Assembly (NCBI RefSeq): GCF_009911265.1
Contig: NZ_QXXA01000007.1
Coordinates: 1-64,000, forward strand
Source of the DNA: Senegalia massiliensis
GTDB lineage: Bacteria; Bacillota; Clostridia; Tissierellales; SIT17
Direction of reading: 5' to 3'
DNA: 64,000 nucleotides
Below, in pieces: positions 35,828 to 61,996 of this stretch (position 1 is its first letter; each line of letters begins with the position of its first letter). The translations under genes were made by a program, and so were the position numbers. A model generated the notes under the pieces. It was not told the DNA's origin, made no database searches, and saw only the letters and a program-made list of their open reading frames with translations.

Positions 35828-35859
35828 TATCAATTATGATAAGATTTATTATGATATAA

Positions 35860-35893
35860 CTAAACAAAAAGAACAATTGTTCTTTTTGTTTAG
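35860..35893 (-). terminator. Displaced native terminator of spo0A
   Basis: A perfect 34-bp palindrome (CTAAACAAAAAGAAC stem, AATT loop) directly follows the duplicated spo0A stop codon at attL. At attR the homology ends inside its right arm, so the functional spo0A copy at 53484 does not have it. In the ancestor it would have terminated spo0A. Confidence 0.8.
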
Positions 35894-35977
35894 TTAGTCC
35901 TTTCTAACCTTAATTTATCAGCAACCATTGCTATAAATTCACTATTAGTAGGTTTTCCTTTATTATTTTGAACGGTA
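35888..35977. repeat. attL: 90-bp direct repeat of the spo0A 3' end
   Basis: 90 bp identical to 53482-53571. It covers the last 28 codons of spo0A, the stop codon and 2 bp beyond. It is the boundary on the NUDIX/spoIIM side. The identity shown by direct reading defines the element ends. Confidence 0.93.
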
Positions 35978-36160: not shown

Positions 36161-37270
36161 TTACCATGCACTTATAACTTCTATTTCTCTAGTTGTTATA
36201 ATACTATTATCTTCTATTAAAGTTGCAGTAATTGTAACTGTTCCTTTTGTTTCACCATAAACTTCAATTGAAGTTTCATCTTGACTATTAATTGATACAT
36301 TTGCATTAGATACATCCCATGTAACGCCCTTAGAAACTGATACACCTCCATTTGTAACATTAGCAGTATAAGTTCTAGTTTCCCATTGTTTTAAGATTGC
36401 ATCTCCTACTATTTCAATAGCATAACTTCCACCAGTTGCTACTTCTTCAATATTTAGTGCTATAGTATCTGTAACACCTTCATAATCAACCGTTATATCT
36501 ACACTACCAACTGAAACGCCTGTTACAAGTCCCGTATTATCAACAGTAGCAATAGTATTATCACTAATATTAAATGTTAATATGGGATTAGATACAGGCA
36601 TATCATTCTTCATAGCATCTACATTTATTTGTAAAGTATCACCTACATATAAATTAGTAGTTGTATTAGTTATAGTAACGCTATAAGTATCAATATTTAT
36701 TCTATCTGCATCGGCTATTTCATTTACTTTATCATCATTAGGAACAAATAAATCTTTATCTGCATAGATTTTATATATTCCCTTTTCCGCATTTGTAATA
36801 GATATTATTTTCCAGGCCGACTTCATTTTAATAAACCTTTCTCCTATTGGTATTTGACTTGTAATATCATCTTCTTTAATGTATATAATAATCTTACCTT
36901 CTCCAAGTGTAATATATTTATTTTCATCTAATCCAACACTACCCTCATCTACAATAGCAGGAATAGGATATACAGTTTCACCTATAATAAAGTTAATATC
37001 AAACCTTATACGTCTTATAGTGTATTTACTATATACATTATTAATGCTTTCTTCTTCATGGATAATCATATAATCTACACCTAGTATGTTTATAAAGTCG
37101 CCTTGTTTTACTTGTCTTAACTCTGCAAATAAATATTTATGATCTGTTAAAGATTTACCATCTTTTAACTCTTGCATAAATACCCTTATTGTTTCTGTAT
37201 TATTTAATGTTGCATTATAACCAAACTTTTTAAGATGTTGTTTGAATTGGTTTTTTAATGGATTCAACAA
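36161..37270 (-). CDS. Head-connector/adaptor-like protein with Ig-like (Big_2) domains
   Basis: A 369-residue protein. The N-terminal ~185 residues resemble small phage head-tail adaptor proteins (MLNPLKNQFKQHLKKFGYNAT, then a beta-rich domain with YMIIHEE, SAWKIISI). Residues about 190-280 form a Big_2 Ig-like domain (NPILTFNISDNTIATVDNTGLVTGVSVGSVDITV), and about 285-369 a second Ig-like repeat (VTWDVSNANVSI, GTVTITATL). The TTG start follows GAGGTG. It is the last element gene before attL. Ig-like domains on virion parts are thought to aid attachment to surfaces. Confidence 0.65.
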   Translation of the reverse strand: MLNPLKNQFKQHLKKFGYNATLNNTETIRVFMQELKDGKSLTDHKYLFAELRQVKQGDFINILGVDYMIIHEEESINNVYSKYTIRRIRFDINFIIGETVYPIPAIVDEGSVGLDENKYITLGEGKIIIYIKEDDITSQIPIGERFIKMKSAWKIISITNAEKGIYKIYADKDLFVPNDDKVNEIADADRINIDTYSVTITNTTTNLYVGDTLQINVDAMKNDMPVSNPILTFNISDNTIATVDNTGLVTGVSVGSVDITVDYEGVTDTIALNIEEVATGGSYAIEIVGDAILKQWETRTYTANVTNGGVSVSKGVTWDVSNANVSINSQDETSIEVYGETKGTVTITATLIEDNSIITTREIEVISAW

Positions 37271-37357: not shown

Positions 37358-37696
37358 TTATCCTCTTGTAAATAATAAACTTACATTTGTACTTAATTCT
37401 TCTGTTTCGGGAATATTTAATATTCTATTTCTGATTCTATCTATCCTATCATTTAAAAATCTTATTGCCTCACTCGTTGTAGAAAATTCTGTTTCTACCT
37501 TTCTCATCAAATCAACATCATTAGCAACCGACTCTAATATATCTGTAACTGTATACAATAAGTCCCTTTGCATACTAATTTTTATATATACATCTGTATC
37601 TACAAGATTATTTTCTTCTAAGTAAACCTTATACTCTGCATTTGTAAAATATTCTTTGTTGTTAAGTTCTAACTTTAATCGCTCTAATACTGTCAT
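37358..37696 (-). CDS. Probable small head-tail connector protein
   Basis: A 112-residue, helix-rich acidic protein (TVLERLKLELNNKEYFTNAEYKVYLEENNL) with the size and N-terminal pattern of phage DNA-packaging or connector proteins that follow the portal and capsid. AAAAAGGAG precedes the ATG. It is paired with the downstream adaptor-like gene. The assignment rests on size, context and weak sequence resemblance. Confidence 0.45.
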   Translation of the reverse strand: MTVLERLKLELNNKEYFTNAEYKVYLEENNLVDTDVYIKISMQRDLLYTVTDILESVANDVDLMRKVETEFSTTSEAIRFLNDRIDRIRNRILNIPETEELSTNVSLLFTRG

Positions 37697-39976: not shown

Positions 39977-41287
39977 CTATTCACCTTCAGTTTTACTATC
40001 TTTACTTTCATGTTCAATTCTCTTTATCTCACTGTCAACATTATTAGTTAATGGACTCTTTTCAATATATGTACGTCTACTAATAACACCATCTTGATAT
40101 TGCTTGCTTAACTGCTCTATCACTTCAGAACTATCTATAGGTCTATTATAATTAAATTCTATATCAATGTAATCATCATCATTAAACTTAATTCCTTTTT
40201 TATTTAATAATAATTCTAACTTCTCAAATCTTTCTTCTAGTCCATCCCTAAGATATACTTCTAACTCCCTAGCCATTGCATCTAAATTCTGATATAGTAT
40301 CTTTAAACTAACCTCTGATACATTAGCTATATTAGATTGTCCAAACATATGAGAAGGAACTCCACTTATAATAACCAACTGCTCTATCAAAGCATTGTAT
40401 AATATCTTAATACTATTACTGTCTAACTCGGCAACTGCATATTTAAACTCTGCTCCATCTTCTAAATTAATCATATAACCTATACCATCTGCATCAATAG
40501 TACCTGAAACCCTTTGTCCTGATACATAAGGAATAGGATTTAAACTTAATATTGTAATAGCATCATCCATTTTATTTAATAGATATTCCAATTTCTCTAA
40601 TATAGGTTTTATATCCTCTAATAAACTTCTACCAAAGTTTTCTTCCTCGGTATTCTGTCCATTAATGTAATGAATAGGTAGACCTGTTATATTTGCTTTA
40701 GTATCCTCTAAGATATAGTTACCACATGCATTAGTCCACTTTTCAACTATATTAGGTTTATATACTATGTAATATGATATACTACTTACGGCATCTGTCC
40801 AATGTTCTATAAAGCCGATATAATCCCCTTCATCACTATATATAGGGTATCCATCTTCAGAACTGATAAGTTTACTTGTTCCCTTACCATTACTATAATA
40901 CACATATTCAAATATATCTCCATATTGATTAAGGTCTTTTACTACCTTATAATTAATACTATTATACTTACCTTTTCTGAATACCTTGTTATATTCCTTT
41001 ACCATGTTATCTGTACCTGTTAAACTAACCTTCTTACCCATTATATAAGAATTATGAGTCCTTAGAATTGCCTTTGCAGTTTGTAATATCATCTTAGATA
41101 CCTTTAGTTCTTTATCTTTATATGTTATATCTTCTCGTTCTAGTACCTTATGTAACTTTCCATTCAAGTATTGTTTATTATTTAATACTTTACTAATCCT
41201 CCCTATATGATGAGCTTGTTGTATTTCCTCTGCAAACCAATAAGGATTGTTACTATAATGATCTTGTATGTATTTATCTAATTTCAT
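39977..41287 (-). CDS. Phage portal protein (SPP1 gp6-like)
   Basis: A 436-residue portal of the SPP1/phage_prot_Gp6 type. It starts LDKYIQDHYSNNPYWFAEEIQQAHHIGRI, then has LQTAKAILRTHNSYIMGKKVSLTG, KDLNQYGDIFEYVYY, LPIHYINGQNTEEENFGRSLLEDI (typical portal wing-stem region), SGVPSHMFGQSNIANVSEVSLKILYQNL and a C-terminal RPIDSSEVIEQL...GVISRRTYIE. It forms the dodecameric DNA gate at one capsid vertex. ATG after AGGAGG; terminator hairpin upstream at 41307-41334. Confidence 0.88.
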   Translation of the reverse strand: MKLDKYIQDHYSNNPYWFAEEIQQAHHIGRISKVLNNKQYLNGKLHKVLEREDITYKDKELKVSKMILQTAKAILRTHNSYIMGKKVSLTGTDNMVKEYNKVFRKGKYNSINYKVVKDLNQYGDIFEYVYYSNGKGTSKLISSEDGYPIYSDEGDYIGFIEHWTDAVSSISYYIVYKPNIVEKWTNACGNYILEDTKANITGLPIHYINGQNTEEENFGRSLLEDIKPILEKLEYLLNKMDDAITILSLNPIPYVSGQRVSGTIDADGIGYMINLEDGAEFKYAVAELDSNSIKILYNALIEQLVIISGVPSHMFGQSNIANVSEVSLKILYQNLDAMARELEVYLRDGLEERFEKLELLLNKKGIKFNDDDYIDIEFNYNRPIDSSEVIEQLSKQYQDGVISRRTYIEKSPLTNNVDSEIKRIEHESKDSKTEGE

Positions 41288-41306: not shown

Positions 41307-41334
41307 AAATAGAAAGGTCTTTTAGACCTTTCTA
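41307..41334 (-). terminator. Hairpin between the ART-like and portal genes
   Basis: An AGAAAGGTC/GACCTTTCT stem with a 5-nt loop and ATTTTAAT downstream on the minus strand, overlapping the stop at 41332. Confidence 0.65.
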
Positions 41335-42551: not shown

Positions 42552-42692
42552 CTAATTTAGTAATGTTACAATCTTTAATACCTTCATGTAATCAATATTA
42601 TCTCTGTATTCTCTTATTAATTGAATCTTGTTGTTTTTATACTCTATAAATACCTTATCCCATATTTCTTGTAAATAATCTCTCATATCCAT
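42552..42692 (-). CDS. Short gene after terL, probable 5' part of the ART-like gene
   Basis: 46 residues from ATG 42690-42692, 10 nt after AGGAGG: MDMRDYLQEIWDKVFIEYK and a Lys/Ile-rich continuation ending VLKIVTLLN. After codon ~33 (IDYM) the alternative -1 frame reads HEGIKDCNITKLEDNLQEIDKG and continues without a stop into the ART-like protein. I therefore suspect a frameshifted gene, rather than an independent peptide. Confidence 0.5.
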   Translation of the reverse strand: MDMRDYLQEIWDKVFIEYKNNKIQLIREYRDNIDYMKVLKIVTLLN

Positions 42693-42711
42693 ATTAATCA
42701 ATCCTCCTATT

Positions 42712-44259
42712 TTATCCTTTATACCAAATTCCTGTATTAAGTCCTTCAAGGGCTAAACATATTGCCATTACTGTATCATCATGTTGTCCACTAATAGCAC
42801 CCATTTTCCCATTTTTTGACTTAAATACTTTCATTTCTTCTAACAGTATTTTACTATTAATGAGTATCTGTCCTTCTTCAAATAATTCCCTTAATCTATC
42901 CACCATAATTGGCTTAGTTTTACCATTAGTTACAAAGCCGACTTTCTTCTTAGCCCTACCCCTAGCATCATAATCCTTATGTTTATGTAGGTTTGGATAT
43001 TTATAGTCATATTTGAGTTTAGTTATAATCGAATGTCCACTGGATGCCTTTTCTATTGTCATATAACCTGTATTATAGTAAGTCCCTATTTGATAGCATA
43101 CCTCTGCGAAAGTATGTGGGGCTAACTTGTTATGTCTAAACTCTGCAACTTGTATTCCTTCTTCAGATACCACTTCTATTACAGAATAGTCCTGCCCTAT
43201 ACCTTCCCCACTATCTACACCTATATAATATCTAGTGTCGGGCTTAGGTTTTTCCCATATAAAAAGCGTCCTATTCAAGTAAAATTTCAGATTACTTGAT
43301 AAGTCGCCTAATTTATTATTATTTATTGTTTTAGGAAGGTATCTTGTACGTTCTAGTATCTTTTTACTATCAAATACATTATTTCCTGTTGAAACGAATG
43401 CTTCAACATCATCAAAGGGAAATTCTTGTGCAAACTGATCTCTGCTTGAATTTGCTATTTTCATTCTACGCCATGTAAGAATATCTAAATTAAATCTACT
43501 ATCTAATTCTAATAGATGTAATTCTTCTGTAGTTAAATCATCTTTAGTTAAATCTCTACCATGAATATTCCTATATATTTTCTTTTGCTTTGCATGGTCT
43601 TTCTTGAACATTTCTAAAGTATCAAGATAATTAAAAAAGAATGGCTTATATGAGTTCTCGCCATCCTTTGCTTTACCATAAAGTTGATGATAAAAATTTC
43701 CTATACCATTGGCAGTTGATTCAATAAAAATCTTTCCACTTGGTACTAATGCTTGTTCTAAGGATAATAATTGTCCTTTTGCTTGATCTCCAACAAATGC
43801 CAACTCTGATATATGTATAAGTTTTAAACTTGATCCTCTGCCTAAATCCTTCTTACCCATAGTTTCACAATTAATACTACTACCATTCTCAAATGCTAAT
43901 TCCTGTCTATTATTTCTTTTGAGTTTAGGTTTTATAGCATCAGGAATAGTATAGTATATAGTTTTTAATTTATTAAATATAGACCTTGTACTCTCTATTC
44001 TATGACTAACCATTAAACAATGAGTATGTGGAGTTGTAAGTGCATAATATAATGCTAATGCACCTATAAATACACTTCCTCCCCCTTGTCGTGCCTTTAA
44101 GATAATATTATAATCATCCATTCCATCATTTATAGCCCGTTGCATTGTATTTAATTTAAAGGGTACTATTACACCATCTTTATTAGGTAAACTCATAAAA
44201 TTTTCTATGTATAGTTTAGGATCGCTTAATACCTTTCTTAATTTATCTGCTTTTTTCAT
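42712..44259 (-). CDS. terL: Terminase large subunit
   Basis: A 515-residue packaging ATPase-nuclease. The N-terminal ATPase has an atypical Walker A (KARQGGGSVFIGA, residues 55-67), Walker B LIHISELAF, and a coupling motif IFIESTANG. The C-terminal RNase H-like nuclease shows IGVDSGEGIGQDYSV and the late DDTVMAI acidic pair. It overlaps terS by 1 bp (ATGA-type junction). It drives packaging through the portal encoded downstream. Confidence 0.9.
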   Translation of the reverse strand: MKKADKLRKVLSDPKLYIENFMSLPNKDGVIVPFKLNTMQRAINDGMDDYNIILKARQGGGSVFIGALALYYALTTPHTHCLMVSHRIESTRSIFNKLKTIYYTIPDAIKPKLKRNNRQELAFENGSSINCETMGKKDLGRGSSLKLIHISELAFVGDQAKGQLLSLEQALVPSGKIFIESTANGIGNFYHQLYGKAKDGENSYKPFFFNYLDTLEMFKKDHAKQKKIYRNIHGRDLTKDDLTTEELHLLELDSRFNLDILTWRRMKIANSSRDQFAQEFPFDDVEAFVSTGNNVFDSKKILERTRYLPKTINNNKLGDLSSNLKFYLNRTLFIWEKPKPDTRYYIGVDSGEGIGQDYSVIEVVSEEGIQVAEFRHNKLAPHTFAEVCYQIGTYYNTGYMTIEKASSGHSIITKLKYDYKYPNLHKHKDYDARGRAKKKVGFVTNGKTKPIMVDRLRELFEEGQILINSKILLEEMKVFKSKNGKMGAISGQHDDTVMAICLALEGLNTGIWYKG

Positions 44260-44654
44260 TATTCTTCAATCCCTAAATTTATATTATCTAATATACTTTC
44301 TAATTCATTCTTACCTTCAATGTCCTTGAAGAAGTCCTTTGAAAAGTCCATTAAATACTTAGCCGACTGAACATCTCCATCTAATGCCTGTTGATACATT
44401 TTATCGTATATATTCTTCATTTTTTCGGTATGTAATAACTTCATATAATATTGTATTCCCTTGCTAACATCTGGCTCTAATCTCCATTTCTCCACGTTCT
44501 CCCTCTGCAAATCGCCTAATACCTTTTTATTTAAATCTTCAAAGTCCTCTCTCTCATCTTCTGGTGTACAATACCATACAATGTAACGTGCTTTCTTATA
44601 GTTTGTCATATCCGTTAATATTTGCATAAATGTTCTGTTATCTGATCTACCCAT
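44259..44654 (-). CDS. terS: Terminase small subunit-like protein
   Basis: A 131-residue acidic, helical protein directly upstream of and overlapping terL. It has EDFEDLNKKVLGDLQRENVEKW, YYMKLLHTEKMKNIYDKMYQQALDGDVQSAKYLMDFSKDFF: the QALDGDVQSAKYL(M/L) segment recalls the C-terminal region of small terminases (NGDV.AA..LL). Assigned by this pattern and position. AGGTGAT precedes the ATG. Confidence 0.7.
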   Translation of the reverse strand: MGRSDNRTFMQILTDMTNYKKARYIVWYCTPEDEREDFEDLNKKVLGDLQRENVEKWRLEPDVSKGIQYYMKLLHTEKMKNIYDKMYQQALDGDVQSAKYLMDFSKDFFKDIEGKNELESILDNINLGIEE

Positions 44655-44792: not shown

Positions 44793-44938
44793 GTACCTAA
44801 TTTATTTATGTAGAACAAAGAAGTAATTTACGGTCAAAAATATGAGTAAATACCTATATTTCAATGTTTATTAAGGTTTTTATTAGGTTCTATATGCACC
44901 TAATATCCCTATTATTAAGTTCCTATTTGCACCTAATA
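44793..44938. repeat. GCACCTAATA repeats beside the rep-like gene
   Basis: GTACCTAAT (44793-44801), GCACCTAATA (44896-44905) and GCACCTAATA (44929-44938), plus an inverted ATTAGGT at 44882-44888. They lie in the 278-bp gap after the RepL-like gene, the last copy running into its 3' end. Possible binding sites for that protein or an origin. Confidence 0.4.
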
Positions 44939-45514
44939 ACGAGTAATTGGTATATAATCCTTAAATAATTCCTTTGTATAGGTATATACTCTATCTCCTG
45001 CACACATTAAATGAGGATTGCAATATATTTCTCTAGACCTTGTTCCACCGACTCTTTTAATAAAATGTTTTTCTTCTAATTCATCAAGTGCATATACTAA
45101 TGCTTTTTTCTTAAGTCCTGTTATTTTCATTAAATCTTTATTATTAATTCTCTTACCATCTTTGAAAGCAATTCTGTTTGATATAAACTCGATATATACC
45201 TCTATAGAAAATAAAAAAGCCCTTGAATCAGGGCTTAACTCTATAGTATTCACATATTCTCTTAGTTCAGTTCTGTAAATTTTTATAAAATGGCAATCCT
45301 TTTTCCAGCTATAAATAATTTCTTCTTGTTCTTCTCCTACCATTTTCTTTACTTCTTTTTCTACCGCTTTATCTTCTTTGATATGTTTATCTAAATCTTT
45401 TAAAATATCCTTTATATCACTTTTATTTTCTACAATTTCACCTGTATCAATATCTATTATTTTATTATCTTCAAAATCAATATTATAATTGCCTATCTGA
45501 TATCCCTTTATCAT
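44933..45514 (-). CDS. RepL-like winged-helix replication protein
   Basis: A 193-residue protein. The N-terminal third is acidic and lysine-rich. Residues about 120-180 form a winged helix (NNKDLMKITGLKKKALVYALDELEEKHFIKRVGGTRSREIYCNPHLMCAGDRVYTYT) whose end resembles the Firmicutes RepL family (YxxNPxL..(R/G)G). RepL proteins initiate replication of small plasmids; similar domains occur in phages and satellites. Repeats just downstream support a Rep/ori unit, but a transcription-regulator role remains possible. Confidence 0.55.
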   Translation of the reverse strand: MIKGYQIGNYNIDFEDNKIIDIDTGEIVENKSDIKDILKDLDKHIKEDKAVEKEVKKMVGEEQEEIIYSWKKDCHFIKIYRTELREYVNTIELSPDSRAFLFSIEVYIEFISNRIAFKDGKRINNKDLMKITGLKKKALVYALDELEEKHFIKRVGGTRSREIYCNPHLMCAGDRVYTYTKELFKDYIPITRY

Positions 45515-45748: not shown

Positions 45749-46543
45749 CTATAATGCCGAATACTTTAATGTATTTTTATAAATTAATGCACTACTAAAA
45801 ATCCTATTTCTTTCTTTTTCAAGTATTTTTATATTACCTGGACTTAGATTAATACCTTCATCAAAAAATCTATGAGTGACTTCAAATTTATCTTTTGGTA
45901 GAGTTAAATCTATATCAAATAAAAAAGACAAACCTTGAAGGTCTATCTCGGTATGTAAGAATCCATTTTTTAAATTTATATCTTTATGTAAATTGTACTT
46001 CCTAATAATATTATAAAAGTATTGTTTATTGTGTTTTCCTACTATTTTTGTAAATATAGGATATTGTAATATATCGTTATAATAATATTTGAATAAGTCC
46101 TTGTTAAAATAATATTGCTTAAAAGCTACATCTACACTAATTAATACTTCAAGTTGTTCTTCTGTAAAACTACTTAAATCTATATTATATAGAGAAAGTA
46201 TTGTTATAAGTGTTGATCCTGCAAACTTATTAGTATAATTTGCCCTTGTAATATCTTTATTGAGAGATACTACATCAGGATTTTTAAAATAAGTTACGTG
46301 ATTACCGAATACAGTTGCATTTTTAACTACTGCATCCATATCTACACCTATAAAACCTTTCCTATCAAAAGAGTTAGTATATCCTAGTTGTTTAAAATCG
46401 TAAAATCCCCTTACTTTACATCCAAACAATCTATTCAATACATAGCAACTAGCTAAACTGTCAATATCATTTGTTAATATTAATTTCTTATCTCTTAAAT
46501 CCTCGTACCATTTGTTAAATTTGTTCTTAAATTCTTTTTGCAT
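45749..46543 (-). CDS. DHH-phosphoesterase-like phage protein
   Basis: About 264 residues. The N-terminal part has LILTNDIDSLASCYVL, similar to the DxDxxxS/A motif I of DHH phosphoesterases, then VRGFYDF, FIGVDMDAV and, about 50 residues later, TNKFAGSTLITILSLYNI. A DHH/DHHA-type phosphodiesterase fold is possible, but the DHH triad itself is not evident. ATG 46541-46543 is used; the SD (AGAGATGG) is weak and an upstream GTG cannot be excluded. Confidence 0.4.
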   Translation of the reverse strand: MQKEFKNKFNKWYEDLRDKKLILTNDIDSLASCYVLNRLFGCKVRGFYDFKQLGYTNSFDRKGFIGVDMDAVVKNATVFGNHVTYFKNPDVVSLNKDITRANYTNKFAGSTLITILSLYNIDLSSFTEEQLEVLISVDVAFKQYYFNKDLFKYYYNDILQYPIFTKIVGKHNKQYFYNIIRKYNLHKDINLKNGFLHTEIDLQGLSFLFDIDLTLPKDKFEVTHRFFDEGINLSPGNIKILEKERNRIFSSALIYKNTLKYSAL

Positions 46544-46657
46544 TTGCCATCTCTGAAGTACAAGCAAACCAACAAACACCTTAAATTTTACTTATTTAAG
46601 AACCCCTTGTGTCCATTACCCCTAAATGATTCTCCTTCTAATTTACACCTCCACGTT

Positions 46658-46921: not shown

Positions 46922-46947
46922 TAAAAAAGAAGGGAATCACCCTTCTT
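46922..46947 (-). terminator. Terminator of the scaffold-capsid operon
   Basis: An AAGAAGGG/CCCTTCTT stem with a 5-nt loop and TTTTTT on the minus strand, overlapping the capsid stop codon. Confidence 0.85.
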
Positions 46948-47776
46948 ATACATTAGTTGATTTAATTACAACTACACCATCATCTTTAACTAATGCAACT
47001 GCATACATCATGTCTGCATATATATTAGTTCTCTTGTAAGATGCTTCTCTTTCAAGCTCTATATCTAAATCTTTTGCAAACTTATACCCTAACGATCTTT
47101 TCTTTATAACAAAAGTAATACACTCATTATTTGTAGAATCATAAGTACCTTTATCTGTTACAAATACTGGTATTCCTCTGTAGTAACCTAAAAGACCATT
47201 TCTAATAAGTCCATTACCTGACACAGTTGTTGTGTTTTGTGCATCTGTAAACTCTGGCATAGCATAAAATGAAGGTATTAAAAGAGAATTAACTACAATA
47301 CCTGAAAATTCATCTATGTCCCTCTCATCACCATAGTTTAATAAAGCACTTTCTATTTCTCCTGAAGTTATTGCGTTAGGACTAGAACAAGTAGCTTGAA
47401 ATGGAGTTGTTTTTGCAACTTCTATCAAATCTGCATCGAGTTTTCTAGCCATAACTATTGAAGTTTGAGATGCACCTTCTTCTAATTGATTTCCTATACT
47501 AGTTTTATTCGAAGAATCATAACATCTAACTCCCTTACCTACCTGTTTGATTAACACAGATTGCTCTGTTTGTTGTAATTCTTCTGTAGAAATTTGATCT
47601 CCCTTTGCCATTTCATTAGGATCGCCTATCAAAGACCATTTGGGGAAAGTTATTTTCTCACCTTGCCCCATACCTTCTAAGTTACCCATATCATCGGCTA
47701 ATTGTAAGATTTTAACCTTGCCATCAAATTTTTCTCTGACAAGACCTGCGTAAATATCTTTTTTAATTAATGTCAT
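46946..47776 (-). CDS. Major capsid protein, HK97 fold
   Basis: A 276-residue capsid protein. It begins with an N-arm (TLIKKDIYAGLVREKFDGKVKILQLADD), followed by GEKITFPKW, the E-loop/P-domain region (GNQLEEGASQTSIVMARKLDADLIEVAK) and GLLGYYRGIPVFVTDKG near the A-domain, typical of phage capsids of the T7/N4-gp56-like HK97 family. It follows a scaffold gene. The short length fits a small head. Confidence 0.85.
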   Translation of the reverse strand: MTLIKKDIYAGLVREKFDGKVKILQLADDMGNLEGMGQGEKITFPKWSLIGDPNEMAKGDQISTEELQQTEQSVLIKQVGKGVRCYDSSNKTSIGNQLEEGASQTSIVMARKLDADLIEVAKTTPFQATCSSPNAITSGEIESALLNYGDERDIDEFSGIVVNSLLIPSFYAMPEFTDAQNTTTVSGNGLIRNGLLGYYRGIPVFVTDKGTYDSTNNECITFVIKKRSLGYKFAKDLDIELEREASYKRTNIYADMMYAVALVKDDGVVVIKSTNV

Positions 47777-47845: not shown

Positions 47846-48316
47846 TTAGTTACTTAACTTTTTATATAAATCAGGATTACTATCATATAATTCTAATCTT
47901 TGTGTATAGTTCATTTTCTTAAAATCTTCTTTAGATATAGCATCACCTTTATTAACTTTCTTTTCAGGTTTATAAGAACTATCTAATACAAAATTATTGA
48001 TTATTTCTCCTAGCTCTTTTCCTACATCTTCAATATCTAATTCATCACTAATATTGATATACTTGCCTAAATCTTTTGGTAAGTTATGCTTTTCTAAAGT
48101 ATCCCTTACTTTGAATTGATTTTCCTTTGCAAGTAACTCTTTTTCTTTCTTCTCTAGTTCAAGTTCTTTTTCTGATTTTTGACTAGGTTTAAGACCTTCT
48201 AATTCAGTTTCTAAAGGTTTGATTTTCTCGCTATACAGTTGAGTCCTAACTCTGTCCTCTGCTCCTTGTATAGCTTTCTCATAATCCTCTTTTGTCATGT
48301 TTTCTTTCCAATCCAT
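47846..48316 (-). CDS. Capsid scaffolding protein
   Basis: A 156-residue, highly charged coiled-coil protein (EDYEKAIQGAEDRVRTQLYSEKIKPLE, then KSEKELELEKKEKELLAKENQFKVRDTL), followed by NLPKDLGKYINISD and EEIINNFV-like helices. This is the phage GP20-type minor structural/scaffold pattern (DUF4355), located just upstream of the capsid gene as usual. AAAGGATG before the ATG. Confidence 0.8.
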   Translation of the reverse strand: MDWKENMTKEDYEKAIQGAEDRVRTQLYSEKIKPLETELEGLKPSQKSEKELELEKKEKELLAKENQFKVRDTLEKHNLPKDLGKYINISDELDIEDVGKELGEIINNFVLDSSYKPEKKVNKGDAISKEDFKKMNYTQRLELYDSNPDLYKKLSN

Positions 48317-48406
48317 ATTTACACATCCTTTCAGTTTGCTATAATTAGCCCGAATAATCGTTCCAACTATGCACCCTAATTTTTTATATTAAAAATAGGA
48401 CTATCT

Positions 48407-48580
48407 CTAGTCCCATAAATAATCTATTAATCTATTCAATTTTTCTTCTGATAAATCTTTTTTACCATTTTTAAACTGTGATAGCATTGATCTTCCTACT
48501 CCAATTTGTTTAGCAATAAAATCATATTTGATACCTTTGCTTTTCACAGTTTCTATTAATCTTTCTCTTACAAAATCCAA
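48407..48580 (-). CDS. Small HTH repressor of the scaffold-capsid operon
   Basis: 57 residues from TTG 48578-48580 after AAGGTGG (8-nt spacer). It is a minimal HTH: FVRERLIETVKSKGIKYDFIAKQIGVGRSMLSQFKNGKKDLSEEKLNRLIDYL. A longer frame to 48721 crosses the leader terminator and promoter, so it is not used. It heads the scaffold-capsid genes and has a perfect dyad (48661-48686) at the promoter. Confidence 0.75.
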   Translation of the reverse strand: MDFVRERLIETVKSKGIKYDFIAKQIGVGRSMLSQFKNGKKDLSEEKLNRLIDYLWD

Positions 48581-48613
48581 TACTATCACCACCTTAAAAG
48601 TAAATTTTTGTTT

Positions 48614-48650
48614 ACTAAAAAAAATAAAAGCCCTACCCAAAGATAGGGCA
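48614..48650 (-). terminator. Leader terminator before the HTH-scaffold-capsid genes
   Basis: A GCCCTA/TAGGGC-type stem (48630-48649) followed by a TTTTATTTTTTTT run on the minus strand. It lies only about 10 nt downstream of the predicted transcription start at about 48656 and upstream of the HTH SD, so transcription would stop unless anti-terminated. Confidence 0.8.
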
Positions 48651-48660
48651 TTAACGGGGA

Positions 48661-48690
48661 ATATTGTATCATGGCAAATACAATATACAA
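48661..48690 (-). promoter_or_regulatory. Promoter with overlapping perfect operator dyad
   Basis: On the minus strand, -35 TTGTAT (48685-48690), 16-bp spacer and -10 TACAAT (48663-48668) with a TG extension. ATATTGTAT-(8 nt)-ATACAATAT (48661-48686) is a perfect 9-bp dyad covering the -10 and spacer, a natural repressor site. Confidence 0.6.
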
Positions 48691-48898
48691 CAATATAATT
48701 ATTTGAGGAGATGTAATTCATCTCACAAAAGGAAAAAGGATATACATCCTTTAAATAATATTTAAGTTTTTAAACACTATTTAAAAAACATATATTTACA
48801 TAAAAGATTGATTTTATTGAAAAGTTATATTAATTCAATAAAAAGTATTGACTTTAGTTTTCCATATATGGTATACTTAAATTTTAAGAGATATTATT

Positions 48899-48973: not shown

Positions 48974-51688
48974 CTAACTTACAAGTATATCTTTATCCAC
49001 AGTTTCGACATTTTCCCTTATAATTTCCAGTTCTTTCTTTTTATTGCTCTTAAATATGTTTAAAAACATCTCTTTATCTAGTTTATAAAATGTGTTAAGT
49101 AGCTCTGTTTTATCCTTAAACCCTATTCTATATTTCTTCTTATTAGTAAATACTCTAAATACAATATCGCTCATAGTTTCCTCTTTGATCTTAAATTTAT
49201 TAATCTTATCTATATACTCTTTCTTTACATTATCAATTTCTTCATATCTTTCATCTTCATCTATAATATTTTCAATCGCACTTCTGATTCCGTTGCCCAT
49301 TTCTTCAACATATGAGAGTATTTTATCTCTTTGTCTAGCTTTAATATTAATGTTAGAATGAGAATTAAGCATTTTTTCCATTTTAATTGTCTCCCTACTT
49401 TGTGCCATATCAATATCATCTAATATCGTGTTTAAGTAATCAACTGGACAGTTATATATTCCATACTTATCTTCGTTCTTTTTAGTGCCTTTTGATTTAC
49501 TTTTCTTTTTATATTTGTTCTTGTTTTTATTGTTTTCTGATACAGATTTAAAAAATATAGGTTTTAATTTTTCTATCAAGTCACTTTTCTTTAATTCTCT
49601 AATTTGTTTATCAACATCAACTTCATACATCCTCTTCGCACTATCAATTGCAATTTCCGATAAAATAGTTGTTATGTCTATACCTTCAAGCAATCTATTA
49701 AGTTTATCACCTATGGTATGATTATTTATTAAATCCCAGTATGTACTCATATAGAATTGTCCTATATTTACCACTGTGCCAATATTTCTTTGACTTTCAG
49801 AAAGTATATTGTCAATTTTAGCCATATTTATTGGATCTACTATATATTGCCTACTATCTGTGTCTACTTCATTTACACAAACTCTGTATTTTCCAAAACA
49901 TTTTTTAGCATTTTTTAACAATATGCTATCAGAAAGCAATATCAAAGTGTCAGAATCGTAATCGCTACCCGATAGTATCCTCTGAAGAGGGAAGTCGATG
50001 GCATTAACACAGATAATGTTTTCTGATAAATTAAAATACTTACTAATAAAATCGTTATTTTTATTCTTGACTACTAGTACATTACTTGGACTTGTATGAG
50101 GATTTCTAAATGCCACATACTCTAATCCAAATGGATGTAATGTTGTATACACTTCATTTTCTTTTAATTTATACTTACTATCATCGACACCTATAGAATG
50201 ATAAAGAAAGCTAACAGGATTGCCAACTATAGTGCAATAATCACCAACTAATCTAATCTTCCCCCTCTTGCAATGAGAAATATAATTGTGTATATCTTTC
50301 TTTCTTTTGTTTTTAAATACCTTAGTATTAACTATATTATTATTCCTATTATAAATATCTACAAACATCATATTACTATTTACTTCATTATCATTATCTT
50401 TTAAAAACTCTATATATGTACTATCATCATTTTTTAATTTTTCTATATAATTAACCTCTAATTGACTCAGCTTTTTCATATCATTATAGGATATTGGCAT
50501 ACTATTTAACATTTGATAACTAGTTTGATTTAAAATATTTCCTTCTTGGTCTTTACCTCTTTTACTTTGTTTGTCGAATTTACATATACCAAATATACTA
50601 TCATCTTCTTTGACTTTCTTTTTCCAATGATTCCACATTTTCGGTCTACTACCTTTTATAAAACTGAATTTTAATGCTTTTAAAGAATTAGGAGTTATAA
50701 TCATATGTATATCTTTCGCATACATTTCTTCACCAAACATATTTTTAACTTTATATGTATTAAAATCTATTCCTTTTTTATTTGCATGATCTTTTAAAAA
50801 CTGTTGTATATTTGTATTAAAGACACAACTTTTAAACATATGTTGTCTTAATAGCATCATTCCTTTGTCTGTTTTACCTATACTCTTAAAATAACTACTA
50901 TCAAGTAGGCCTTCTCCATCATATAAATCATTTTCCATTATGTACTCTTTATTTCTAAAACTTTTCAAAATACCTTGTTCATTTGTTTTTACAACATTAG
51001 CATCAATTTTAAAATTGCTCTTCACATCATCAACTATTAAAATATTATCAGGATTAATTTTTATAATATCTTCTATACTACTACTAACCAAAGATTCGTA
51101 AGCAAGCAATGAAGGATAATCAATATCATTTCTATTACCTAGATTCATTCCCAATCTCGACCACTTTATCATCTTGTTTTTTAGTTGTTTTCTTATAAAT
51201 AGTACCTGCCCCGTTCTACTTTTTGCACCAGTACGTTTGTATACTACATATTCAATTTTCTTACCATTCCCAAAATCAAGTTTAAAACCTTCTGTATATA
51301 ACTTTTCCCTTAGTTTTTTACTGCTTATACCATTCCATCTTTCATCTTCTATTTCACTGTTTATTGTTTTTATAAATTCTAATAATTTTTCCTTATATTC
51401 TTCTTTTAATTCTTGCTTTTCAATTTTCTCCCTTAGTCCCTCAATTACCTTTTCACCTTTTTTAACTTTCCAATCAAACTTTACATTAATTAAATCCCTA
51501 GTCATTAACTTGTCATATTTTTTACTCTCTACAACCTTTAATCCAACTTCCCTTAATTTTCTTAGTTCTAAACTATAAGGGATCATTCCTATATACTTTT
51601 GTTTAATACTGTAGTTGTCATCATTCCTGTATTGATGCTCGTATATTTCTGTTCCTTCTAAAGACATTATGTATACATTGTTATTCAA
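48974..51688 (-). CDS. YonO-type single-subunit RNA polymerase
   Basis: A 904-residue protein. Residues 571-583 read ILSGSDYDSDTLI, i.e. the D-x-D-x-D metal triad (D576, D578, D580) of the double-psi beta-barrel RNA polymerases. Upstream are LVGDYCTIVGNPV (480-492) and AFRNPHTSPSN (526-536). NDLYDGEGLLDSS (254-265) resembles the DGxG loop of eukaryotic RNAi RdRPs and phage SPbeta YonO, which is of similar size. YonO is a known DNA-dependent RNA polymerase of the QDE-1-related family. The second triad position differs (DxDSD for DxDGD). Start TTG 51686-51688 after GGGGGG. It has its own strong promoter and terminator. Confidence 0.75.
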   Translation of the reverse strand: MNNNVYIMSLEGTEIYEHQYRNDDNYSIKQKYIGMIPYSLELRKLREVGLKVVESKKYDKLMTRDLINVKFDWKVKKGEKVIEGLREKIEKQELKEEYKEKLLEFIKTINSEIEDERWNGISSKKLREKLYTEGFKLDFGNGKKIEYVVYKRTGAKSRTGQVLFIRKQLKNKMIKWSRLGMNLGNRNDIDYPSLLAYESLVSSSIEDIIKINPDNILIVDDVKSNFKIDANVVKTNEQGILKSFRNKEYIMENDLYDGEGLLDSSYFKSIGKTDKGMMLLRQHMFKSCVFNTNIQQFLKDHANKKGIDFNTYKVKNMFGEEMYAKDIHMIITPNSLKALKFSFIKGSRPKMWNHWKKKVKEDDSIFGICKFDKQSKRGKDQEGNILNQTSYQMLNSMPISYNDMKKLSQLEVNYIEKLKNDDSTYIEFLKDNDNEVNSNMMFVDIYNRNNNIVNTKVFKNKRKKDIHNYISHCKRGKIRLVGDYCTIVGNPVSFLYHSIGVDDSKYKLKENEVYTTLHPFGLEYVAFRNPHTSPSNVLVVKNKNNDFISKYFNLSENIICVNAIDFPLQRILSGSDYDSDTLILLSDSILLKNAKKCFGKYRVCVNEVDTDSRQYIVDPINMAKIDNILSESQRNIGTVVNIGQFYMSTYWDLINNHTIGDKLNRLLEGIDITTILSEIAIDSAKRMYEVDVDKQIRELKKSDLIEKLKPIFFKSVSENNKNKNKYKKKSKSKGTKKNEDKYGIYNCPVDYLNTILDDIDMAQSRETIKMEKMLNSHSNINIKARQRDKILSYVEEMGNGIRSAIENIIDEDERYEEIDNVKKEYIDKINKFKIKEETMSDIVFRVFTNKKKYRIGFKDKTELLNTFYKLDKEMFLNIFKSNKKKELEIIRENVETVDKDILVS

Positions 51689-51774: not shown

Positions 51775-51792
51775 TTATGGATAATTGTGCAT
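51775..51792 (-). CDS. Five-codon leader ORF (MHNYP) before the RNA polymerase gene
   Basis: ATG CAC AAT TAT CCA TAA, placed 7 nt after a near-perfect GAGGAGG SD and just downstream of the promoter at 51814-51841. It is too short for a structured product. It may act as a leader peptide or standby site, or be the remnant of a deleted gene start. Confidence 0.35.
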   Translation of the reverse strand: MHNYP

Positions 51793-51813: not shown

Positions 51814-51841
51814 ATTATATCATGGATATAGGGTTTGTCAA
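51814..51841 (-). promoter_or_regulatory. Strong promoter of the RNA polymerase gene
   Basis: TTGACA (51836-51841), 16-bp spacer, TATAAT (51814-51819) on the minus strand, both consensus for the vegetative sigma factor. The transcript would start near 51807 with a ~120-nt leader. Confidence 0.7.
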
Positions 51842-52090: not shown

Positions 52091-52318
52091 TTAGTATAAT
52101 AAATCTAACTTGTAAAAAACTATATCTAATCTAGATTCTTCGTCACATATAGACCAAAATCTCATTTTTTTATGAATATCTAACTCTAAATATTTCCTAT
52201 AAAAATATTCAGTCCAATCTTCAGAATTTCTAATTCCCATATTTTTTACAAATTCTTTAATACTTTCTTTGCCTTCTGTTTCTGTAATTCCATACACATC
52301 TTCCATAGTTTTTTTCAT
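52091..52318 (-). CDS. 75-residue hypothetical protein next to the integrase
   Basis: A soluble, acidic, helical protein (MEDVYGITETEGKESIKEFVKNMGIRNSEDWTEYF...) with an aromatic-rich C-terminus. It lies 32 bp downstream of int, probably co-transcribed. Small genes at this position are often excisionases, but there is no clear HTH, so I do not name it. Confidence 0.45.
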   Translation of the reverse strand: MKKTMEDVYGITETEGKESIKEFVKNMGIRNSEDWTEYFYRKYLELDIHKKMRFWSICDEESRLDIVFYKLDLLY

Positions 52319-52349: not shown

Positions 52350-53342
52350 CTAACTTATTATATTCCACTTACTTAATGGGCTATGCCTACAATATTTCTT
52401 TTTTATATCTTCTGTGGTTAAATCTAAATATGCTTGTTCTGTTATTTTGACTGAACTATGCCCCAATATTCGTGATAGAGTGTATAAATCTCCCCCATTT
52501 AAAAGATATTGTTTAGCGAACTGATTTCTTAATTGATGAGGATGTATAGAGATTCCTACGCTATTTCCGACTTTTTTCAAATTCTTTTCAAAGTTACCAA
52601 CCTTTAAAAAAGTATTTCTATTAGTAGGAAACAATAAATAACTTTCTATATATCTATCTTTATAATTTATCCACTTTCTTAATTCAGATGCCATTTTGAA
52701 AGATAAGTATACATATCTTTCCTTATTTCCTTTTACATTTTTAGATATCAGAATCACTTTGTTTTTTATGTCTATATCTTCAGTAGTTAATGATAAACAT
52801 TCTCCTATTCTCATTCCTGTGTCTAATAAAATTATCGTTATAATATAATCTCTATAACCTGTATACTTTGTTAAGTCAAAACCTCTTAATAAAGTTCTAA
52901 ACTCTTCTTGTGATATAGTTTCTTTCATCTTTCTTTTAGTTTTTAAATATTTAATTCTGTTACAAGGATTAACTCTAATAATTCTTTCTTCTTGTAGAAA
53001 GCTAAAAAACACTTTTATATTTCTTAGATAATTATTTATTGTTGTTTCAGATATTTGTTTTCCATAATCGTTCCTATTTTCTGGATTATTGATATACTTA
53101 TTATTTTTGATCTTAATAGTATCTGTATATTTACCTCTTTCCTGAAGATATTTGACATAATTTCTTATATGTGATGTTTTCACTTCTTCTATTTCATCAA
53201 TATTATGTTCATGGTATAAATATCTAAGAAATAACTTAACTGTTTGCTCATATGCTTTAATGGTTTTAGATGATAAATTTTTACTAGTACAATATAACAT
53301 AAAATTTTCTAACTCAAATTCTAAATTCTTAATAAAAAACAC
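52350..53342 (-). CDS. int: Element tyrosine integrase
   Basis: A 330-residue tyrosine recombinase. N-terminal SAM-like domain (ENFMLYCTSKNLSSKTIKAYEQTVKLFLRYL), catalytic Arg in DTGMRIGECLSL, the beta-strand Lys in KGNKERYVYL, HPHQLRNQFAKQYLLNGG (H-X-X-R present), GHSSVKITEQAYLD with the Tyr. It lies beside attR as integrases do. GTG 53340-53342 abuts the GGAGG, too close for normal initiation; an ATT at 53331-53333 is better spaced (10 nt). Transcription could come from spo0A read-through. Confidence 0.88.
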   Translation of the reverse strand: MFFIKNLEFELENFMLYCTSKNLSSKTIKAYEQTVKLFLRYLYHEHNIDEIEEVKTSHIRNYVKYLQERGKYTDTIKIKNNKYINNPENRNDYGKQISETTINNYLRNIKVFFSFLQEERIIRVNPCNRIKYLKTKRKMKETISQEEFRTLLRGFDLTKYTGYRDYIITIILLDTGMRIGECLSLTTEDIDIKNKVILISKNVKGNKERYVYLSFKMASELRKWINYKDRYIESYLLFPTNRNTFLKVGNFEKNLKKVGNSVGISIHPHQLRNQFAKQYLLNGGDLYTLSRILGHSSVKITEQAYLDLTTEDIKKKYCRHSPLSKWNIIS

Positions 53343-53481: not shown

Positions 53482-53571
53482 GTTTAGTTAGTCCTTTCTA
53501 ACCTTAATTTATCAGCAACCATTGCTATAAATTCACTATTAGTAGGTTTTCCTTTATTATTTTGAACGGTA
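53482..53571. repeat. attR: 90-bp direct repeat forming the live end of spo0A
   Basis: Identical to 35888-35977. It supplies the last 28 codons and stop of the functional spo0A. The copy came in with the element, so the coding sequence is restored exactly. Confidence 0.93.
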
Positions 53572-54293
53572 TATCCAAATAAGTTATTTATAGTATCTAT
53601 TTTTCCTCTGCTCCAAGCTACTTCAATTGCATGTCTTATTGCTCTTTCAACTCTACTTGGAGTTGTATTAAATTTTTTTGCTATTTCGGGATATAATTCT
53701 TTTGTTACAGCACTTAATAAATCTATTCTTTCTACTACCATACCTATAGCTTCTCTCAAATATAAATATCCTTTTATATGAGCAGGAACCCCAATTTCAT
53801 GTATTATATTAGTTATATTAGCTTCTAAGGTCTTAGTTTTATTATAAGTAGTTCTATTTATTATTCCATTTGCTTTATTAGTGTTAATATTCCTCTTATT
53901 TGTTTCTCCCATACCACCATTTAACTGTCTAATCCTTTTCATAAAAACTTCAAAATCAAAAGGCTTTACAACATAATAATCTGCACCTAAACTTATTGCT
54001 CTTTGAGTTATTTTATCTTCACCTACTGCAGATAATACTATAATTTTAGGATATTTATCTAAATTAATAGAGTTTAGTTTTTCTAAAACTCCTAAGCCAT
54101 CTAAATGTGGCATTATAATATCTAGTACTAATACATCTGGAATCTTATCTGAGATTAAGTCTAATGCTTCTAATCCATCATTTGCTATGCCAATAACATT
54201 GACATCATTCTGTGTAGATAAATATTCATTAAGTATATTGCAAAAATCTTTATTATCATCTGCAATCAATATATCAATCTTAGAACTGTTCAT
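53484..54293 (-). CDS. spo0A: Sporulation master regulator Spo0A
   Basis: A 269-residue response regulator. The receiver domain (1-125) has DDNKDFC (acidic pocket), the phosphoacceptor D58 in [19 protein letters not shown] and VVKPFDFE. The effector domain (about 150-269) has [42 protein letters not shown] recognition-helix region and ends [19 protein letters not shown]. Phosphorylated Spo0A starts sporulation. The 3' end lies within the att repeat; no terminator separates it from the element integrase. SD AGGGGG-like upstream. Confidence 0.95.
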
Positions 54294-54337
54294 TTAAATT
54301 ACCCCCATTATTTTCTAATTTCATCCTTGTATATTAT

Positions 54338-54344
54338 TTCGACA
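54338..54344 (-). promoter_or_regulatory. Spo0A box (TGTCGAA) upstream of spo0A
   Basis: An exact TGTCGAA on the minus strand, 45-51 bp before the spo0A start, in TTTTGTCGAAATAA. This matches the 0A-box consensus and suggests autoregulation. Confidence 0.6.
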
Positions 54345-54378
54345 AAACTATGATAATTCCTTTTTATTTTTGATATTT

Positions 54379-60785: not shown

Positions 60786-61358
60786 TTATTTGTCTAGTAT
60801 TTTTAAATTTAATTTATTATCAAAAAACATTACTATTTTCCCAGTATAATACATTATATTTTTAGAATAATTTATAGCTATTTCTTTACCAATAGCCTTG
60901 CCTCCTACAGTTAAAGAAGCAATAAATCCACTCATTACAACGCTTAGTGTTGTCAATTCTTTTATATTATAAAAATTAGTTATCTTGAATACTATTATAG
61001 ATCCTGCAGCACCACTTATTATCCCACATATATCTCCAATTACATCATTACAAAAGTTAGAAACCACCCCTGCATTCTTAATTAATTTTATAGAATATCT
61101 TGCAGCTTTATTATTTTGAGCAGCCATAGAATGGAATGGCTTTTCTCTAGCAGCAGCAACAGCTATTCCAATAGTATCAAAGAAAACACCTAATAAAATA
61201 ATAAATATCAATGTTATAAAAGCAAATAATATATTAAAATTTCTCATTACATTTTCTGCTAATAAACTTACTGCTATGGCAAGAAAAAATGTCCATATAG
61301 TAATAATTATAATCCATTTATAATTTGTTTTAGCTTTCATTTTTTTTGATTTCGACAA
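60786..61358 (-). CDS. oapA: OLE-associated membrane protein OapA
   Basis: About 190 residues from TTG 61356-61358, 6 nt after GGAGG. Predicted transmembrane segments: WIIIITIWTFFLAIAVSLLAE, FAFITLIFIILLGVFF, GFIASLTVGG region; with FFDTIGIAVAAAREKPFHSMAAQNNKAARYSIKLIKNAGVVSNFCNDVIGDICGI as the conserved soluble/loop part, similar to the DUF21/CNNM-like core. OapA binds OLE RNA at the membrane. It directly follows the OLE gene, as in other Firmicutes. Confidence 0.85.
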   Translation of the reverse strand: MSKSKKMKAKTNYKWIIIITIWTFFLAIAVSLLAENVMRNFNILFAFITLIFIILLGVFFDTIGIAVAAAREKPFHSMAAQNNKAARYSIKLIKNAGVVSNFCNDVIGDICGIISGAAGSIIVFKITNFYNIKELTTLSVVMSGFIASLTVGGKAIGKEIAINYSKNIMYYTGKIVMFFDNKLNLKILDK

Positions 61359-61379
61359 AACATACCTCCATAATTTTAT

Positions 61380-61990: not shown

Positions 61991-61996
61991 AAATTT

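What the first reader, a model, noticed from the sequence alone, without database searches (positions are those of the whole stretch)
48974..51688. YonO-family RNA polymerase encoded by a compact element
The 904-aa protein carries the D-x-D-x-D triad (D576/D578/D580), the DGxG-like loop and the NP segment typical of double-psi beta-barrel single-subunit polymerases. YonO of SPbeta (134 kb) transcribes late phage genes. Finding a homologue in a ~17-kb element, with its own consensus host promoter and terminator, suggests a two-tier programme: host RNAP makes the phage RNAP, which then transcribes the morphogenesis genes. The triad's Ser in place of the usual Gly is a variation to test.
Basis: partly seen in the sequence, partly recalled or inferred. 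Interest (0 to 1): 0.88.

Follow-up and report, generated by a model that had tools for sequence, protein, structure and literature searches.

The report
Satellite element carrying phage RNA polymerase
A 17.6-kb capsid-encoding mobile element without recognisable tail genes, inserted at the end of the sporulation gene spo0A in a clostridial chromosome, carries its own single-chain RNA polymerase of the family known from the phage SPbeta (YonO).

Summary
The 904-aa ORF (minus strand) is an intact YonO-family polymerase: it hits phrog_8308, the PHROG of SPbeta YonO, full length at E 4.8e-175. The D-x-D-S-D motif is invariant in 32 of 32 aligned sequences, so the Ser is normal for this clade. A confident AlphaFold model (pLDDT 88) matches QDE-1 and RDR2, the only PDB hits below E 0.001. 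A 12/12 sigma-A promoter and a terminator frame the gene.

It has integrase, terminase, portal, capsid and scaffold but no recognisable tail or lysis genes. It belongs to a family of small capsid-forming satellites: 27 portal relatives, 26 on contigs up to 18.8 kb. No polymerase was found in any, nor in six genomic copies whose slot is fully held. Four elements carry a perhaps sigma-70-like protein there instead. The polymerase's closest kin sit mostly on 29-38-kb viral contigs.

[quoted passage not shown] is the best mechanism, but inferred; sister satellites have the same capsid genes without it. Verdict: known enzyme family, new kind of carrier.

The parts
48974..51688 (-). YonO-family single-chain RNA polymerase gene (904 aa); triad D576/D578/D580 in the motif DYDSD
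   Evidence: phrog_8308 E 4.8e-175, the same PHROG as SPbeta YonO at 1220 bits; BLASTP to YonO E 1e-9, reversed-sequence control E 4.8; AF2 model and QDE-1/RDR2 matches
51814..51841 (-). sigma-A-type promoter, TTGACA-16-TATAAT with TG extension, 126 bp upstream of the polymerase start
   Evidence: 12 of 12; only one in the element, 0.063 expected
48630..48649 (-). intrinsic terminator after the polymerase gene
   Evidence: fold -13.8 kcal/mol, z -3.7
53482..53571 (.). att repeat at the spo0A side (3' end of intact spo0A)
   Evidence: exact 90-bp direct repeat; empty site in same-genus genome G001
35888..35977 (.). att repeat at the far side (second copy of the spo0A 3' end)
52350..53342 (-). 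tyrosine integrase; 50% identical to the integrase of the spo0A-inserted satellite in G057
   Evidence: Pfam Phage_integrase E 5.6e-34
52091..52318 (-). 75-aa ORF of unknown function between integrase and polymerase
48407..48721 (-). xre1, small HTH regulator (real start probably nearer 48580, my reading), with relatives in several sister satellites
47846..48316 (-). scaffolding protein
   Evidence: phrog_172 E 2.9e-5; relatives in satellites
46946..47776 (-). major capsid protein
   Evidence: phrog_544 E 3.8e-30; 173 phage records
46658..46888 (-). xre2, small HTH regulator, with relatives in satellites
45749..46579 (-). 276-aa protein of unknown function, with relatives in satellites
44933..45514 (-). 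replication-initiator-like protein (O-like); 49% identical to the one in the G057 satellite
   Evidence: phrog_678 E 1.3e-5
44259..44654 (-). small terminase, by position and by conservation in satellites
   Evidence: no profile match (best PHROG E 0.13); conserved next to TerL
42712..44259 (-). large terminase
   Evidence: Terminase_6C E 3.4e-11
39977..41287 (-). portal protein; marker of the satellite family
   Evidence: SPP1_portal E 2.4e-55; 27 relatives
37358..37696 (-). 112-aa protein conserved in satellites; head-tail adaptor by position only
36161..37270 (-). Ig-domain virion protein; candidate head-completion protein
   Evidence: phrog_215 E 2.9e-9, phrog_16444 E 4.7e-48; fold search dominated by Ig domains

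Best explanation
The gene encodes a probably active, single-chain, DNA-dependent RNA polymerase of the YonO family, carried by a 17.6-kb, spo0A-integrated, capsid-forming satellite without recognisable tail genes. SHOWN by sequence or computation: family membership, intact catalytic motif, polymerase fold, a host-type promoter and a terminator around the gene, the exact element ends, the gene content, and the position of the gene in a slot whose content varies between sister satellites. INFERRED: on induction, host RNA polymerase transcribes the gene from the sigma-A promoter; the enzyme then transcribes satellite genes, most likely the downstream block from scaffold to Ig protein, from a promoter that host RNAP does not read well; the packaged heads are finished with tails of a co-resident or infecting phage. 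The gene was probably acquired from the lineage of small tailed phages in which its nearest relatives lie.
For: Identity; fold. Transcription unit. Element ends and empty site. Satellite family: 14, then 27 portal relatives, gene maps, tally. A sister satellite at the same spo0A site in G057; spo0A-end copies in L119, L130 and L168. Tree: the polymerase falls in a clade of 9 (99/99) with six viral contigs of 29-38 kb and two cellular contigs. Function by homology: YonO transcribes SPbeta late genes (PMC5467207, text parts 1 and 2 of 5 read; PMC8270828, one passage). Possible tail donors: four tape-measure genes elsewhere in the same genome.
Against: No expression, activity or promoter data. 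No polymerase in 27 of 27 viral-contig relatives (many partial) or six of six genomic copies, so the capsid module does not in general need it. No distinct promoter could be assigned: no host-type site of 10/12 or better lies within 700 bp upstream of scaffold in the window element, but the same is true of L117, L119 (658 bp held) and L124, in which no polymerase was found. No helper has been shown; only one YonO-type gene, this one, was found in the host genome, so the resident tailed prophages do not look like YonO phages.
Confidence: 0.6

Rival explanations
1. The polymerase acts on the helper phage rather than on the satellite: it transcribes (or mis-transcribes) late genes of a YonO-type helper so that tails and lysis proteins are made, or it competes with the helper's own polymerase.
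For: The satellites lack recognisable tail and lysis genes and must get them elsewhere. Several sister satellites share genes with YonO-encoding phages, e.g. 84% identity between the L120 slot protein and the gene just upstream of the polymerase in the G011 prophage.
Against: Only one YonO-type gene, the satellite's, was found in the host genome, although three other contigs hold both a terminase and a tape measure. Sharing is not specific: relatives of the L124 619-689-aa-type protein also occur in L152 and L153 without a polymerase in the stretch held and in 3 Staphylococcus/Enterococcus phage records that are not among the 11 records with a polymerase match.
Confidence: 0.2
2. The element is a decayed prophage and the polymerase a passenger without present function.
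For: No recognisable tail or lysis genes; capsid and scaffold genes lie upstream of the terminase, an unusual order.
Against: The same order recurs in many elements, with portals down to 33-36% identity. L119 has integrase next to the Ig gene across a spo0A-end copy, as in an excised circle or concatemer. The ORF is intact with all catalytic residues.
Confidence: 0.08
3. The enzyme makes RNA for replication or an early step (for example primers) rather than late mRNA.
For: On many 29-40 kb viral contigs the gene lies downstream of an ORF of about 200-660 aa that I take for a replication protein (the label is recalled, and the one member scanned in Pfam, from a satellite, gave no match); the satellite's own replication protein is small (193 aa).
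Against: YonO, the member studied in the paper read, serves late transcription (PMC5467207).
Confidence: 0.1
4. It is an RNA-dependent RNA polymerase, as homologues are labelled in some phage records.
For: Best fold matches are eukaryotic RDR2 and QDE-1; record labels.
Against: YonO strongly prefers DNA templates (PMC5467207); QDE-1 structures with DNA template also exist; I know of no RNA stage for such elements.
Confidence: 0.03

Closest known systems
YonO of Bacillus phage SPbeta (phrog_8308)
   Same: Same PHROG over the full length, aligned triad, BLASTP E 1e-9, similar size (904 versus 839 aa)
   Different: About 20% identity; DxDSD instead of DxDGD; carried by a 17.6-kb element without recognisable tail genes instead of a 134-kb phage; followed by a terminator and the xre1/scaffold genes
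Capsid-forming PICIs (cf-PICIs)
   Same: Similar size; integrase; own terminase, portal, capsid and possible connectors; no recognisable tails
   Different: A scaffolding protein, no head protease or HNH nuclease found; SPP1-type portal; spo0A attachment site; RNA polymerase present. Sequence relation to published cf-PICIs was not tested
QDE-1 / RDR2 polymerases
   Same: Whole-length fold match, Z 20-27 for 13 of 14 listed entries
   Different: Cellular RNA-silencing enzymes; 10-14% identity
Phage polymerases P32 gp64, P74 gp62, P23-45 gp96 and crAss-like phi14:2 virion RNAP
   Same: Match the model at Z 15.4, 15.3, 11.0 and 8.6
   Different: Other phage groups; the phi14:2 enzyme is larger and virion-packaged; matches weaker than to QDE-1

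Membership tests
YonO-like single-chain RNA polymerase | Full-length homology to YonO | tested here: met
   phrog_8308, residues 1-892, E 4.8e-175; YonO hits it at 1220 bits; BLASTP E 1e-9, 7e-9 among 48 SPbeta ORFs, reversed control 4.8
YonO-like single-chain RNA polymerase | Catalytic triad DxDxD | tested here: met
   32 of 32 and 7 of 7 aligned sequences
YonO-like single-chain RNA polymerase | Double-psi beta-barrel holding the triad | tested here: met
   Model 479-600 on B. subtilis beta' (Z 8.3, 2.5 A over 93 residues) and 481-587 on a designed DPBB (Z 7.8)
YonO-like single-chain RNA polymerase | Second double-psi beta-barrel | tested here: inconclusive
   Covered only by the whole-length alignment to QDE-1 (635 residues, 4.0 A); not folded or measured alone
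YonO-like single-chain RNA polymerase | DNA-dependent RNA synthesis | not testable with these tools
   Needs an assay
YonO-like single-chain RNA polymerase | Required for late gene transcription | not testable with these tools
   Needs RNA-seq; no polymerase found in sister elements
Capsid-forming satellite, cf-PICI type (definition from passages of PMC10690885 and PMC10803314) | Own capsid, portal and terminase genes | tested here: met
   small terminase by position and conservation only
Capsid-forming satellite, cf-PICI type (definition from passages of PMC10690885 and PMC10803314) | No tail genes | tested here: met
   PHROG scans of 17 element ORFs; the integrase was scanned, ORFs under 65 aa and the 65-aa ORF 42552-42749 were not scanned. 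Only the Ig-domain protein touches tail PHROGs, weakly (best 4.6e-5). Longest ORF in 27 portal relatives 689 aa
Capsid-forming satellite, cf-PICI type (definition from passages of PMC10690885 and PMC10803314) | Head maturation protease and HNH endonuclease | tested here: not met
   None among the ORFs scanned (limits as above); a scaffolding protein is present instead. So it works like a cf-PICI but is not filed as one
Capsid-forming satellite, cf-PICI type (definition from passages of PMC10690885 and PMC10803314) | Mobilised with tails of a helper phage | not testable with these tools
   Four tape-measure genes in the same genome; dependence not tested
SPbeta-like phage | Large tailed phage genome | tested here: not met
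   17,594 bp, no recognisable tail

The most novel reading that the evidence does not exclude
In this family of clostridial satellites, several of which use the spo0A 3' end, the slot between integrase and the capsid operon is an exchangeable transcription-control cassette: a sigma-70-like factor in some (L120/G015, L121, G030, G057) and, in this element, a complete RNA polymerase taken from a tailed phage. This satellite would then transcribe its own capsid operon without the late transcription machinery of host or helper: the first satellite known to me with its own RNA polymerase.
Probability: 0.3. Interest if true: 0.8.

Novelty: new variant of a known kind. Interest (0 to 1): 0.62.

Why it matters
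As far as I know (recalled), described satellites use host or helper RNA polymerase; a satellite with its own polymerase would uncouple its gene expression from both. The compact setting (one polymerase gene, one capsid block, 17.6 kb), with relatives in which no polymerase was found, gives a natural plus/minus comparison for finding the YonO-family promoter, which the YonO paper left open (PMC5467207). It also points to a family of capsid-forming satellites in Clostridia, for which I found no name, that repeatedly uses the 3' end of the sporulation regulator gene spo0A as attachment site.

Tried and rejected
Considered and rejected: (1) Artefact ORF: rejected by homology and fold. (2) Ser in the triad as a special change: rejected, S579 in 32 of 32. 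(3) Small genome as the surprise: rejected, 19 of 35 viral relatives lie on contigs of 29-40 kb. (4) Decayed prophage: unlikely given recurrence of the layout. (5) Slot proteins as remote polymerases: hhalign of the slot family against the YonO family gave probability 0.2. (6) Slot proteins as sigma factors: suggestive only; NCBIfam sigma70-ECF matches 2 of 4 members, one at E 7.4e-5 and L121 at 0.16, with L121 below the curated cut-off (the other member's score was not shown); Pfam shows weak HTH hits, PHROGs at best an HTH protein at 0.028, the PDB profile search nothing relevant.

Led nowhere: PDB sequence searches with the protein, with YonO and with the profile (one chance hit at E 2.7); plasmid collection; portal, Ig protein and 112-aa protein in the annotated phage collection (no match); Ig-protein fold search, dominated by Ig domains, so the head-completion reading stays inconclusive; promoter comparison across satellites, not discriminating; leader folding of the polymerase mRNA, no signal (z 0.9). 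In one search my script reported no polymerase in the SPbeta locus L010; repeating the comparison with a looser cut-off found YonO there at E 7.1e-9, so that line is a miss of the script.

Rows dropped: of 38 loci with a polymerase hit the 32-row alignment holds the window and 31; left out were near-duplicates L083, L084, L085, L090, L103 and the truncated L114 and L116. The tree has those 32 rows plus L053, L055, L006 and YonO.
Full report
OBSERVATION. The ORF 48974-51688 is on the minus strand, 904 aa, TTG start. It has no Pfam, NCBIfam or PDB-sequence match but matches phrog_8308 over residues 1-892 at E 4.8e-175. That PHROG has no function label, but SPbeta YonO hits it at 1220 bits, so it is the YonO family. 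Direct BLASTP with YonO gives E 1e-9 and aligns the triads; the reversed sequence gives E 4.8. In a broad alignment of 7, D576, D578 and D580 are invariant; in 32 closer sequences D, D, S, D are 32 of 32. The Ser is therefore a clade state; Gly appears in YonO and TR-TP1.

FOLD. AlphaFold2 on the 32-row alignment gives pLDDT 87.7 and pTM 0.82. Foldseek against the PDB returns 18 hits with E below 0.001, all QDE-1 or RDR2. VIA-align gives Z 27.2 (maize RDR2) and Z 23.7 with 635 residues at 4.0 A (QDE-1), then phage polymerases P32 gp64, P74 gp62, P23-45 gp96 and phi14:2. Among predicted viral structures the best match is a protein labelled RNA-dependent RNA polymerase of Podoviridae sp. ctxqo3 (E 2.7e-60). 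The triad-bearing segment 479-600 matches the B. subtilis beta' barrel at 2.5 A over 93 residues. I did not measure the Asp distances or fold the first barrel alone; the second barrel rests on the whole-length QDE-1 alignment.

TRANSCRIPTION UNIT. A 12/12 sigma-A-type promoter with TG extension lies 126 bp upstream (51841-51814). It is the only 12/12 site in the element; 0.063 are expected. A terminator hairpin at 48649-48630 follows the gene. So the polymerase is probably made by host RNA polymerase as a single-gene message (inference).

ELEMENT ENDS. An exact 90-bp direct repeat at 35888-35977 and 53482-53571 equals the 3' end of spo0A. Genome G001, same genus, has the empty site: its sequence matches 34963-35977 and 53484-54455 with an 88-bp overlap. 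The insertion is 17,594 bp and leaves spo0A with its full 269 codons.

WHAT THE ELEMENT IS. The genes named here all face one way: integrase, 75-aa ORF, polymerase, xre1, scaffold, capsid, xre2, 276-aa protein, 69-aa protein, O-like replication protein, small and large terminase, 390-aa protein, portal, two accessory ORFs, 112-aa protein, Ig protein. No tail or lysis gene was recognised among 17 ORFs scanned against PHROGs; the Ig protein touches tail PHROGs weakly through its Ig part (best 4.6e-5), and the accessory ORF 38465-39370 touches spanin PHROGs only at E 0.006 and above. A scan with the portal found 14 relatives in IMG/VR, and with a portal alignment 27; 26 of the 27 contigs are 4.0-18.8 kb and one is 28.7 kb. 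Short metagenome contigs may be truncated, but in genomic copies the same block lies between ordinary chromosomal genes. The layout scaffold-capsid-xre2-276 aa-replication-TerS-TerL-portal-112 aa-Ig recurs, with losses and replacements. In genome surveys the portal occurs in 3 of 391 class genomes and 5 of 249 order genomes, this genome included in both. L120 and the G015 copy are the same element, and L141 and the G441 copy appear to be; L117, L118, L119 and L125 are close to each other; so copies are not all independent.

ATTACHMENT SITE. The G057 satellite (36% portal identity, another family of the order) also sits at the spo0A 3' end, with a 75-bp 97% repeat 16,958 bp apart (my subtraction) and a 50% identical integrase. 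Copies of the spo0A end also occur in L119, L130 and the G439 satellite L168. In L119 this copy lies between the Ig gene and the integrase, as expected of an excised circle or concatemer; no terminal repeat was found in that contig. Other satellites showed no such copy, so they use other sites or the end is not held.

THE POLYMERASE IS THE ODD GENE. tblastn finds no polymerase in 27 of 27 viral-contig relatives, in 10 loci from six genomic satellites, or in L150 and L151 (L149, also listed there, is the L124 contig again). Many of the 27 are partial: 10 hold at least 2 kb upstream of the scaffold or capsid gene (L117, L120, L121, L124, L125, L127-L130, L141). In the six genomic copies integrase, or its end, and scaffold region are both held, so their slot is fully seen. 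In that slot, between integrase and the capsid block, four elements (L120/G015, L121, G030, G057) carry mutually homologous proteins of 441-504 aa. A sigma-70 superfamily model matches 2 of the 4, one at E 7.4e-5 and L121 at 0.16; Pfam gives weak HTH matches only. L130 has a DEAD helicase there; others have HTH proteins or little. A maximum-likelihood tree of 36 polymerases puts this one in a clade of 9 (99/99) with six viral contigs of 29-38 kb and two cellular contigs. Transfer from such a phage lineage is likely.

YONO FAMILY AT LARGE. phrog_8308 is found in 19 of 391 class genomes at E 1e-10 or better and, among 14 controls, only in B. subtilis; the relative survey with the protein gave 4 of 60 including this genome. 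The 35 IMG/VR relatives lie on contigs of 11-173 kb, 19 of them 29-40 kb. On many of the latter the gene follows an ORF of about 200-660 aa that I take for a replication protein; on large contigs it is often followed by a short HU-like ORF (both labels recalled). In G011 it lies in a contractile-tailed prophage (sheath E 1.6e-11, tape measure E 2.9e-5 below cut-off).

LINKS TO YONO PHAGES. Several satellites share genes with polymerase-carrying phages: 84% for the L120 256-aa protein and the gene upstream of the G011 polymerase, and 40-45% for the 619-647-aa proteins of L117, L119, L124 and L125 and the gene upstream of the L001 polymerase. This is not specific: relatives of the L124 protein also occur in L152 and L153 with no polymerase in the stretch held and in 3 annotated phage records that are not among the 11 with a polymerase match. 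The host genome has four tape-measure genes and three terminases besides the satellite's, hence possible helpers, but only one YonO-type gene was found in it.

MECHANISM. By analogy with SPbeta, where YonO transcribes the late genes (PMC5467207, parts 1 and 2 of 5 read; PMC8270828, one passage), the enzyme most likely transcribes the downstream capsid block. This is inferred. Against it, sister satellites have the same block without the gene, and no host-type promoter difference was seen.

KNOWN OR NEW. The family and its phage role are known. cf-PICIs (passages in PMC10803314 and PMC10690885; the original paper recalled, not read) are the functional parallel, but protease and HNH were not found here, so the element is not filed as one. 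Paper searches, seen as listings only, for YonO, cf-PICI, satellites with RNA polymerase and spo0A attachment with satellites or prophages showed no title or abstract on a satellite with its own RNA polymerase or on this satellite family; the library is open-access only and the papers listed were mostly not opened.

Noticed in passing
window 61429-61999 (-): OLE RNA (RF01071, 480.7 bits), next to ORF 60786-61427, which had no Pfam match.
   Followed up: partly
window 48317-48380 (-) and the same place in 11 satellites (e.g. L117:3007-3070, L127:2204-2258): A short leader just upstream of the scaffold gene; a GGGxTTA-N8-AACT-like pattern was found there in 8 of 9 sequences searched (not L141), twice in tandem in L117 and L127. 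Present with and without the polymerase; function unknown.
   Followed up: partly
L006 (MT835887.1) 4048-13243: A YonO-family polymerase near a MobL relaxase, an HTH_17/AlpA excisionase-like protein, an integrase and a second integrase-like ORF: looks like an integrative mobilisable element, not a phage.
   Followed up: partly
L067 (G338) 15208-18542: A YonO-family polymerase gene just downstream of a clear sigma-70 factor gene (Sigma70_r2 and r4); may bear on promoter recognition by this family.
   Followed up: partly
L119 9681-12123: Integrase directly after the Ig gene with a spo0A 3'-end copy between them: looks like an excised circular or concatemeric satellite with attP.
   Followed up: partly
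L171/L179 (G057), L168 (G439), L130: The spo0A 3' end recurs as attachment site in several satellites of this family.
   Followed up: partly
window 41332-42504 (-): 390-aa protein between terminase and portal with two segments resembling ADP-ribosyltransferase starts (recalled resemblance; no Pfam match, and no PHROG match better than 0.08); a 135-aa relative sits upstream of the terminase genes in L134.
   Followed up: no
window 51775-51792 (-): Five-codon ORF (MHNYP) with a strong ribosome site between the sigma-A promoter and the polymerase start; possible leader peptide, read from the sequence.
   Followed up: no
G000 contigs C26, C19, C25, C4: Four tape-measure genes, three with a terminase on the same contig: further tailed prophages in the host.
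   Followed up: partly
L087 2696-5583: In this 29.3-kb prophage contig the polymerase reading frame is split into two ORFs.
   Followed up: no
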